Source: Valencia hispanica (Eukaryota; Chordata; Actinopteri; Cyprinodontiformes; Valenciidae). From it: a stretch of DNA of 64,000 bases. Made by a program: the position numbers and the translations under genes. Positions 43,301 to 64,000 of this stretch are shown here, piece after piece. The stretch lies in the NCBI GenBank assembly GCA_963556495.2, contig OY747707.1, forward strand, positions 1,366,501 to 1,430,500. The letters run 5' to 3'. The notes beneath the pieces were generated by a model. It did no database searches and was not told the origin of the DNA. It worked only from the letters and a program-made list of their open reading frames with translations. The first letter of the stretch is position 1. Each line of letters starts with the position of its first letter.

Positions 43301-46300
43301 TGTCAAAAGGTCTTCTGACACTTATCAGATACTAAGACCTTTCAAACTCTTTCCTGCTGTTTACTTCTGGCAGAGATAGAGAAAGTTTTATCCCTCAAAT
43401 ACTGGAGAGCTGATTCTTTGTTGAGCGGTCGTCAGCCTTTGCTTCTAGTAGCGCAACTAATGAATTGTCAGACTCTAGGTCTAGGTCGAGATAGGTTTGA
43501 AAACAAATACGCTCTTGTATTGTACGTGTTTAGAAAGAACTGAACTTAACCTTCTCTGCTGAGCTGGACCACAGAAACGCAGTACTTGTTTTCTCCCACA
43601 TTGAGCTTTTATACTTAACTCACTTCAAACAGCATCCTACAAAACCTCACAAGGTGAATTGTGTCACTCTCTTACCAGTCCCTGTTGGTGGCAAAGGTGT
43701 GGCTCTTCCATGCACTGTGCTCATGACAGAGGAGAGCGTTTCTTGGACGCTAGGGAGGTCTGTGAAGTCAGATACTGAGAGCGCATAATTAGGCTCATAT
43801 GATAACTTCTGCAGCTCTCTACTGTCAGAGGTCCTTGTTCCAATACCAATCACAAAGACGCCCTGCTGTTTGAGAGCAGAGGCTGGGGCATCAACATTGT
43901 CCAAAGACCTTCCCCCAGTTAGCAGGATCAACGTTTGCGGGACACCTTGCAGATGTCTACTTCCCGATGAGTTTGTAAAGACATTGCCCCTGACGTACTG
44001 GAGGGCTGCCCCGGAGTTCAGGGGTCTTCCTCCTCTGTGTCTAAGCCCTCTGACCGCATCCACAATATCCTCTCTTGTATTGTACGTGTTTAGATAGAAA
44101 TGGACCTCAGCATCTCTACTGAACTGGACCACCGAAACGCGGTCCTTGTTTTCTCCCACATTGAGCTTTTCCACCACTTTTTCAACAAAATCACGCATGG
44201 CCGGGAAGCCATTCCTTGTGCCATCAGAACCATCGAGGAGGAATACAATATCCTTTTTGGCAGCGTCGGCTGAGAAAAGGAAGGAAGGCAAAAGAGTCAA
44301 AACCTTTGGTCAAAGTTGCCTGATAGGGTGATAATTGACTAGAGGCAGGTTTTAGAAAAGTCAGTTTGTCCTAAGCTTTCTATCGTTTCCCCAGCAGTTA
44401 ATTATAGTATGAATTATCATGCAAGGCACACTGAGACGTAAAGAAATATCCTACTTTATTTCCATCCCTACGTGTGTAGAAATGAGACAAGACAAAACGC
44501 AGGACACCAGGAGAACATGCTTGATAACATACCGAGTACAGTTGGTGACTCGGGCGTGATGTCAATCACCACAGCCTCCACAGAGGACTGAAGCTGCTGT
44601 TGGACACTGGGAAGGTCAGTGAATTCGGACACAGACAAAGCATAACTGGGAGCGTGGGATACTTTCTGTAACTCTCTGCTGTCGGAGCCTCTGCTTCCAA
44701 TTGTAAAGATCAAGACACCCATCTGTTTGAGAGCAGCGACTGGTGCGTCGACACTGTCAAAAGATCTTCCGCCACTTATCAATACTAGGACCTGTTGAAC
44801 TCCTTCCGCCTGCCTGATTCCGGCAGAGGTAGTGAAAACGTTATCCCTCAAGTACTGGAGTGCTGCTCCTGTGTTGAGGGGTCTTCCGCCTTTGTGCCTC
44901 AAGCCCCTGACAGCGTCAAGTATCTCGCCTTTTGTCATGTACGTGTTCAAATAGAACTGGACAGCTGGATCCCTGCTGTACTGAACCACTGAGACACGGT
45001 CTTTGTTGTCATCCACACTGAGTGTCTCTACTACTCTTTGGACAAAGTCTCGCATTGCTGGGAAGCCAGTCCTAGTGCCATCAGATCCATCCAGCAAGAA
45101 CACCAAGTCCCTTCCTGGCTGCTGTCTCACCACTAGGGAACATAAGATTTGGGACAATTTGAGGTTCAAGTAGCAAATTCTTCCCGTATGGAAGTGATAA
45201 AATCACAGATAAGCTACAAAGCCAAAAGTTAGTCTCTTTCTGCTAGCGCGGCTAATGTATTGTCAGACTTTTGCTTTCTGAGCTAGGCTTGGCAAAATAT
45301 ACATGAACTCACTTCAAACAGCATCCTACAAAACCTCACAAGGTGAAATGTGTCACTTTCTTACCAGTCACTGTTGGTGGCAAAGGTGTGGCCCTTCCAG
45401 GCACTGTGCTCATGAAAAAGGAGAGCGTTTCTTGGACGCCAGGGAGGTCTGTGAAGTCAGATACTGAGAGCGCATAATTAGGCTCATATGATAACTTCTG
45501 CAGCTCTCTACTGTCAGAGGTCCTTGTTCCAATACCAATCACAAAGACGCCCTGCTGTTTGAGAGCAGAGGCTGGGGCATCAACATTGTCCAAAGACCTT
45601 CCCCCAGTTAGCAGGATCAACGTTTGCGGGACACCTTGCAGATGTCTACTTCCCGATGAGTTTGTAAAGACATTGCCCCTGACGTACTGGAGGGCTGCCC
45701 CGGTGTTCAGGGGTCTTCCTCCTCTGTGTCTAAGCCCTCTGACCGCATCCACAATATCCTCTCTTGTATTGTACGTGTTTAGATAGAAATGGACCTCAGC
45801 TTCTCTACTGAACTGGACCACCGAAACGCGGTCCTTGTTTTCTCCCACATTGAGCTTTTCCACCACTTTTTCAACAAAATCACGCATGGCCGGGAAGCCA
45901 TTCCTTGTGCCATCAGAACCATCGAGGAGGAATACAATATCCTTTTTGGAAGCGTCGGCTGAGAAAAGGAAGGAAGGCAAAAGAGTCAAAACCTTTGGTC
46001 AAAGTTGCCTGATAGGGTGATAATTGACTAGAGGCAGGTTTTAGAAAAGTCAGTTTGTCCTAAGCTTTCTATCGTTTCCCCAGCAGTTAATTATAGTATG
46101 AATTATCATGCAAGGCACACTGAGACGTAAAGAAATATCCTACTTTATTTCCATCCCTACGTGTGTAGAAATGAGACAAGACAAAACGCAGGACACCAGG
46201 AGAACATGCTTGATAACATACCGAGTACAGTTGGTGACTCGGGCGTGATGTCAATCACCACAGCCTCCACAGAGGACTGAAGCTGCTGTTGGACACTGGG

Positions 46301-64000: not shown

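What the first reader, a model, noticed from the sequence alone, without database searches (positions are those of the whole stretch)
43676..64000. Collagen VI alpha-3 with a greatly expanded vWA array: at least 29 complete N-terminal domains
The sequence shows 24 complete vWA exons and part of a 25th in tandem, plus N1-N5. Human COL6A3 has ten N vWA domains (general knowledge). Such a chain would more than double the N-terminal arm of the collagen VI tetramer. That could change microfibril bead size, ligand valency or tissue mechanics; the functional part is inference.
Basis: partly seen in the sequence, partly recalled or inferred. Interest (0 to 1): 0.9.

Follow-up and report, generated by a model that had tools for sequence, protein, structure and literature searches.

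The report
Giant homogenised domain array in collagen
A fish collagen VI gene contains a long run of near-identical, in-frame domain exons that would nearly triple, or more, the protein's outer arm compared with the ten-domain chain known from mammals; related fish gene models show similar runs, so this looks like an old, little-noticed repeat inside a matrix gene rather than a one-off oddity.

Summary
Confirmed. On the minus strand, 43,676-64,000 holds 12 tandem 1,689-bp units, each with two complete vWA exons (B 594 bp, A 600 bp), plus the 57-nt end of a 25th exon. All 24 exons are open, phase 1-1, and keep both splice sites. With N5-N1 downstream this gives at least 29 N-side vWA domains of a col6a3 orthologue; Gly-X-Y, C1, C2, FN3 and two Kunitz exons follow. 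The array runs off the window. One correction: the expansion is not singular. Listed fish col6a3 models carry up to 34 N-side vWA domains in one helix-bearing record; models on one contig sum to 69 in a tuna (joining inferred). Array copies are mostly 97-100% identical within a species, while A and B copies are orthologous between species: concerted evolution. A domain tree suggests a roughly ten-domain ancestor with separate expansions near N4-N6 in several jawed-vertebrate lineages; support is partly weak. N1-N5, reported as needed for assembly, stay outside the array. Expression, effect on microfibrils and individual copy number are untested. Nine paper searches gave no description of it.

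The parts
43676..44269 (-). array exon B1 (vWA), 3'-most of the array in the transcript
44533..45132 (-). array exon A1 (vWA)
45365..62022 (-). array exons B2-A11: 20 exons in ten 1,689-bp units (B 594 bp, A 600 bp, introns 263 and 232 bp)
62255..62848 (-). array exon B12 (vWA)
63112..63711 (-). array exon A12 (vWA)
63944..64000 (-). 3' end of array exon B13 (57 nt), cut by the window end; the array continues
39915..40526 (-). N5 vWA exon (fixed, not part of the array)
38997..39617 (-). N4 vWA exon; groups with gar and Xiphophorus N4 (0.987), next to turtle and coelacanth N4
38296..38892 (-). N3 vWA exon
34021..34632 (-). N2 vWA exon (best matches: the N2 position of 9han_C and the alpha3 N2 crystal structure 6snk)
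33542..33876 (-). first exon of the split N1 domain
28263..32876 (-). triple-helix region: 14 non-nested Gly-X-Y candidate exons (16 rows, 2 nested)
25275..25768 (-). C1 vWA exon candidate
23692..24465 (-). open frame holding the C2 vWA exon
20541..20801 (-). fibronectin type III exon
18801..18986 (-). Kunitz exon 1
17400..17585 (-). Kunitz exon 2

Best explanation
This is part of a fish col6a3 gene (cyprinodontiform, judged from its nearest relatives). Next to the fixed proximal domains N5-N1 sits a coding tandem array whose unit is two exons, A+B, each a complete collagen-VI-type vWA domain of symmetric phase 1-1; relatives have further distinct domains on the far side. Unequal crossing-over or gene conversion between units copies, deletes and homogenises them without breaking the frame, so array length can drift or be selected while each domain stays foldable (inferred from the pattern). 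The translated chain would carry at least 24 cysteine-free vWA beads without a canonical metal site, on top of the N1-N5 assembly module. The most likely effect is a much longer N-terminal arm standing out from each microfibril bead, with a repeated two-domain surface giving high ligand valency. Shown: gene identity, exon integrity, array anatomy, within-species homogenisation, conservation of A and B between species. Inferred: the recombination mechanism, full inclusion in mRNA, arm length and ligand role.
For: Exon and splice integrity in 24 of 24. Downstream Gly-X-Y, C1, C2, FN3 and Kunitz exons in order. Predicted B1 fold: pLDDT 90.8, best PDB matches are the collagen VI alpha3 N5 entries (TM 0.93 and 0.90) and then N2. 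Tree of 186 domains: the 12 window A exons form one clade (0.992) and the 12 B exons another (0.957), each beside Goodeidae and Xiphophorus/Anableps copies, so A and B are orthologous across species but homogenised within. Same arrangement in relatives: 66 of 100 helix-bearing models have four or five non-array vWA domains between array and helix. The array mean of between-species identity exceeds the mean of N2-N5 in 13 of 15 species (overall means 78.4 and 76.9% for A and B, 66.3-74.9% for the fixed domains), arguing against a decaying array. All 24 array domains lack cysteine and read DGSDG at the metal-site loop; all 12 B copies keep one N-glycosylation sequon.
Against: No transcript or protein evidence was available; skipping of array exons would also stay in frame. 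Within the window, nonsynonymous change among B copies is close to neutral (pN/pS 0.86; A 0.25; pairs not independent), and exons are no less diverged (1.74 and 1.31%) than the two introns (0.73 and 2.30%), so constraint shows between species, not between copies. Units may be misassembled. In one search the array value is the best of many copies, which favours the array; the Salmo row lacks several fixed domains; in 7 of 15 species at least one fixed domain is more conserved than at least one array class, and in 3 (stickleback, Tachysurus, gar) than both. 12 of 100 helix-bearing models lack an array by my criterion.
Confidence: 0.76

Rival explanations
1. Assembly artefact: a shorter real array was inflated, for example by placing two haplotypes or repeated read paths in tandem.
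For: Units 3 and 5 and units 7 and 10 are identical; a three-unit block recurs with 9 differences in 5,067 bp.
Against: 10 of 12 units are distinct, the longest exact repeat is 3,507 bp and the longest stretch with at most 5 mismatches is 5,129 bp, short enough for long reads to place. Gene models of many other fishes, including Takifugu (24 N-side vWA, nine of them 99% identical to another), show the same kind of array in the same place.
Confidence: 0.12
2. The array exons are real DNA but the mature mRNA contains few of them: the array serves mainly as a reservoir of interchangeable exons for alternative splicing, and chains of near-mammalian length are made.
For: All 24 exons are phase 1-1, so any number can be skipped. 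Annotated Pygocentrus isoforms differ by steps of about 200-330 aa (7,625, 7,294, 7,094 and 6,894 aa). Alternative splicing of chicken alpha3(VI) type A domains is in print (only the title was seen, in the reference list shown).
Against: Splice sites are uniform and close to consensus in 24 of 24 exons, and one helix-bearing gene model keeps 28 array domains. How far such models rest on RNA was not checked, and predicted isoforms over near-identical exons are unreliable either way.
Confidence: 0.2
3. A non-functional tandem duplication: the array drifts neutrally and its length has no consequence.
For: B copies differ nearly neutrally and exons are not more alike than introns; copy numbers look erratic among related fishes (three A/B units in the Xiphophorus model, at least 12 here); in some species fixed domains are better conserved than the array.
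Against: No stop or frameshift in 24 exons, array domains are on average more conserved between species than N2-N5 (13 of 15 species), and near-identical vWA runs recur in models of shark, coelacanth, frog and ray-finned fishes.
Confidence: 0.17

Closest known systems
Mammalian COL6A3, alpha3(VI) chain (ten N-terminal vWA domains, PMC3919171, abstract and passages seen; solved chain PDB 9han_C)
   Same: Order N5-N1, triple helix, C1, C2, FN3, Kunitz; fold of the array domain closest to alpha3 N5
   Different: At least 24 extra near-identical A/B domains directly upstream of N5; two Kunitz exons instead of one (one in human: recalled)
col6a3 gene models of other fishes (Xiphophorus, Crenichthys, Anableps, Thunnus, Gasterosteus, Pygocentrus, Lepisosteus and others)
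   Same: Homogenised array next to the proximal fixed domains; A and B types orthologous in percomorphs
   Different: Number of copies; a three-domain period in Alosa and Tachysurus; many models look broken into pieces
Coding VNTRs such as the kringle IV-2 array of human LPA (recalled, not looked up)
   Same: Works like it: a tandem unit of two exons, high identity, copy number free to change in frame
   Different: Different protein; copy-number polymorphism between individuals not tested here

Membership tests
col6a3 / collagen VI alpha3 | Tandem collagen-VI-type N vWA domains, mostly one exon each | tested here: met
   (exon borders modelled from splice signals, not from cDNA)
col6a3 / collagen VI alpha3 | N1 split over exons directly before the helix, matching alpha3 N1 | tested here: met
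   the only PDB sequence matched up to E 1 is 9han_C (alpha3 chain), E 3e-27; only the first N1 exon was modelled
col6a3 / collagen VI alpha3 | Triple helix of about 110 Gly-X-Y triplets | tested here: inconclusive
   14 non-nested Gly-X-Y candidate exons found, not assembled into a complete helix
col6a3 / collagen VI alpha3 | C1 and C2 vWA, FN3 and Kunitz domains after the helix | tested here: met
   the Pro/Thr-rich C3 region was not sought
col6a3 / collagen VI alpha3 | Assembly with alpha1 and alpha2 into microfibrils | not testable with these tools
   needs protein
Coding tandem repeat under concerted evolution | Copies within a species more alike than to their counterparts in other species | tested here: met
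   window A copies 96.5-100% and B copies 93.4-100% alike, 88-93% to the nearest relatives; species-wise clades (two Oryzias domains fell outside the array groups)
Coding tandem repeat under concerted evolution | Frame kept at any copy number | tested here: met
   24 of 24 exons phase 1-1 and of a length divisible by three
Coding VNTR | Copy number differs between individuals | not testable with these tools
   only one assembly; the genome search did not complete

The most novel reading that the evidence does not exclude
Ray-finned fishes carry a length-variable coding macrosatellite in col6a3: a two- or three-exon unit kept in frame and homogenised since before gar and teleosts split, giving alpha3(VI) chains with some 40-70 N-side vWA domains (roughly 9,000-16,000 aa), whose arm length varies between species and probably between individuals and tunes matrix mechanics or ligand valency. 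Public annotation hides it by cutting the gene into several 'uncharacterized' models.
Probability: 0.45. Interest if true: 0.8.

Novelty: new variant of a known kind. Interest (0 to 1): 0.6.

Why it matters
Collagen VI microfibril architecture is known from mammalian chains with ten N domains, of which at least five are reported as needed for assembly. Fishes whose arm is about three times, perhaps up to seven times, that long, built from copies kept alike by recombination, would be a natural experiment on what the arm does, testable by comparing or shortening arrays in laboratory fish. It also warns that some fish col6a3 annotation may rest on fragments of a much larger gene.

Tried and rejected
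Rejected: that the mammalian chain is the reduced form of an ancestral long array. The domain tree places N9, N8, N7, N4 and N3 as one-to-one groups across jawed vertebrates (support 0.999, 0.898, 0.798, 0.97, 0.997), while array domains fall near different fixed ones: shark near N4 (0.872), coelacanth near the N5 types (0.439), Xenopus as N6, N5 and N4 types. So separate expansions in the N4-N6 interval fit better. Weak points: the N10 (0.386) and N5 groups are poorly supported, the N6 group has no shark or ray-finned member, and one internal Xiphophorus domain fell with N10. Rejected: a separate helix-less paralogue. Of the 26 helix-less models grouped by contig, 19 hold only array-class domains, and many start at an internal Met inside an array exon, as fragments would; two (P0032, P0070) start with a signal-peptide-like stretch and distinct domains, as the gene's 5' end should. 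Of all 103 helix-less models in the first two searches 48 hold only array-class domains. That models lie on one contig is inferred from equal contig lengths; order was not checked, and some models could overlap. Adjacent locus tags exist for Tautogolabrus and Channa only.

Led nowhere: the window's own assembly could not be searched (10 tries), so the array's far end, the species and the full copy number remain unknown. Rfam at gathering threshold: no match. Tandem Repeats Finder missed the array because its longest period is 500. My Kunitz pattern matched none of 100 and was replaced.

Literature: nine searches of an open-access library; from listings and abstracts' first lines I saw no description of expanded fish col6a3 vWA arrays. 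Subscription papers and preprints are not in it. Four papers were opened for passages only.

Full report
What is there. The window's minus strand carries a col6a3 gene read from high to low coordinates. From 43,676 to the window end lie twelve tandem units of exactly 1,689 bp; identity at that lag is 98.5%, against 25-28% at neighbouring lags. Repeat homology starts at about 43,621, inside the intron that follows exon B1. Each unit holds two exons, B (594 bp) and A (600 bp), separated by introns of 263 and 232 bp without length variation. All 24 exons are open, of symmetric phase 1-1, with intact splice sites. The window ends 57 nt into a 13th B exon, so the array continues.

The rest of the gene. 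Downstream follow N5, N4, N3 and N2 as single exons and the first exon of the split N1, whose only PDB match is an alpha3(VI) chain (9han_C), at the segment directly before the triple helix. The tool does not name that chain's species; domain numbers in it are assigned by me from position, with N2 and N5 cross-checked by the crystal structures 6snk and 4igi. Fourteen non-nested Gly-X-Y candidate exons, C1 and C2 vWA, an FN3 exon and two Kunitz exons complete the order. The spliced N region is 5,701 aa without a stop.

How alike the copies are. Ten of twelve units are distinct; units 3 and 5 and units 7 and 10 are identical. At the protein level A copies are 96.5-100% and B copies 93.4-100% alike. 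The block of units 6-8 recurs as units 9-11 with 9 differences in 5,067 bp, the mark of a recent block duplication or, less likely, of a false one. Removing it leaves 18 array exons and 23 N-side domains. The 12 B copies differ at 22 amino-acid positions, enriched in the last 27 residues around the linker (9 of 22; Fisher p 0.0007); the A copies differ at 11 (3 in the last 27, p 0.17). pN/pS among copies is 0.86 for B and 0.25 for A, and exons are not more alike than introns: among copies, homogenisation rather than selection is the main visible force.

Fold. The AlphaFold2 model of B1 (11 sequences, pLDDT 90.8) matches the collagen VI alpha3 N5 crystal structures best (TM 0.93 and 0.90), then N2. 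The N5 paper (PMC3919171, abstract and passages seen) reports a C-terminal extension that puts the termini at opposite ends and allows a beads-on-a-string arrangement, and says that most collagen VI vWA domains lack a conserved MIDAS. All 24 array domains read DGSDG where the canonical motif is DxSxS (motif recalled) and have no cysteine; all 12 B copies keep one N-glycosylation sequon and no A copy has one.

Relatives. Three protein searches (the best 120 hits of each are listed out of 2,054, 146 and 1,275) gave 232 proteins. Nearest are Goodeidae (Crenichthys, Goodea), Anableps and Xiphophorus at 88-93% for array domains, so the window is from a cyprinodontiform; the species is not known. 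Among the first 203 proteins single records hold up to 35 vWA domains, and helix-bearing ones up to 34 on the N side. Of 100 helix-bearing models, 88 have at least four domains that are 95% or more identical to another in the same chain, and 66 have four or five non-array domains between array and helix. These fractions are biased upwards, since the queries were array-like, and isoforms of one species count apart; 12 of 100 lack such an array. In the teleost and gar models with both ends the array sits between distinct distal domains and N5-N2. Several models on what seems to be one contig look like pieces of one gene, many starting at an internal methionine in an array exon: N-side totals are 69 in Thunnus albacares, 62 in Pygocentrus, 60 in Tautogolabrus and 52 in Siphateles (contig inferred from equal contig length, order and overlap not checked).

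History. In a tree of 186 domains all 12 window A copies form one clade (0.992) and all 12 B copies another (0.957), beside the copies of related fishes. So the A/B pair is old, at least percomorph-wide, and copies are homogenised within each species; two Oryzias domains fell outside this pattern. Tachysurus, Pygocentrus and Alosa have three classes in the same tree; Alosa and Tachysurus repeat cleanly every third domain. A second tree with gar, shark, coelacanth, frog, caecilian, turtle and four mammalian domains gives one-to-one groups for N9, N8, N7, N4 and N3. Gar and teleost array domains fall together (0.984), along with some of their distinct distal domains; shark, coelacanth and Xenopus repeats fall near N4, N5 and N4-N6 types. 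The turtle model has nine full N domains and no near-identical pair. I read this as a roughly ten-domain ancestor with repeated expansions in the N4-N6 interval; several deep nodes are weakly supported. Between species the array mean is above the mean of N2-N5 in 13 of 15, but in 7 of 15 at least one fixed domain is better conserved than at least one array class.

How it most likely works. Symmetric exons let unequal exchange or conversion change copy number without frame damage (inference from the pattern). N1-N5, reported as critical for suprastructure (PMC3919171 passage; [quoted passage not shown] The N9-N1 array of the alpha3 chain is described as a tight C-shape, with N-terminal globules projecting like angled radial spokes (PMC4777857 passage). 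An arm of 29 or more beads would be several times longer; at roughly 4-5 nm per bead (recalled) its contour would exceed 100 nm. A repeated two-domain surface without a metal site suggests a multivalent or purely mechanical role. None of this was tested; no transcript or protein data were at hand.

Verdict. The expansion is larger than the ten-domain mammalian chain, probably larger than the window shows, but belongs to a widespread feature of fish col6a3 for which I found no description in print in nine searches.

Noticed in passing
17400-17585 and 18801-18986: Two Kunitz exons at the C-terminal end; of 100 helix-bearing relatives 51 show two Kunitz-like motifs by a simple pattern, 43 one and 6 none.
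   Followed up: partly
1248-3381: Long degenerate minisatellite of CATCCCTTTGACCCCTC-like units with strong strand asymmetry (GC skew down to -0.67).
   Followed up: no
36250-36482: 39-bp tandem repeat, about six copies with 92% matches, between the N3 and N2 exons.
   Followed up: no
13163-14740 (minus): 525-aa open frame with a reverse transcriptase domain (Pfam RVT_1), probably a LINE-like element.
   Followed up: partly
6667-7128 (minus): 153-aa open frame resembling the end of a retroviral coat protein (Pfam TLV_coat, E 1e-6); described only.
   Followed up: no
40760-40823: Perfect 14-bp tandem repeat, 4.6 copies, between N5 and the array.
   Followed up: no
public proteins P0121, P0122, P0124, P0125, P0082: Fish vWA-array proteins annotated as 'uncharacterized' (P0121, P0122, P0124, P0125), at least some starting inside a vWA exon; one collagen alpha3(VI)-like protein (P0082) is named as a Piezo channel.
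   Followed up: partly
P0230 (Xenopus laevis) and P0221 (Latimeria): Smaller near-identical vWA runs also in frog and coelacanth col6a3 models, apparently built from different ancestral domains.
   Followed up: partly
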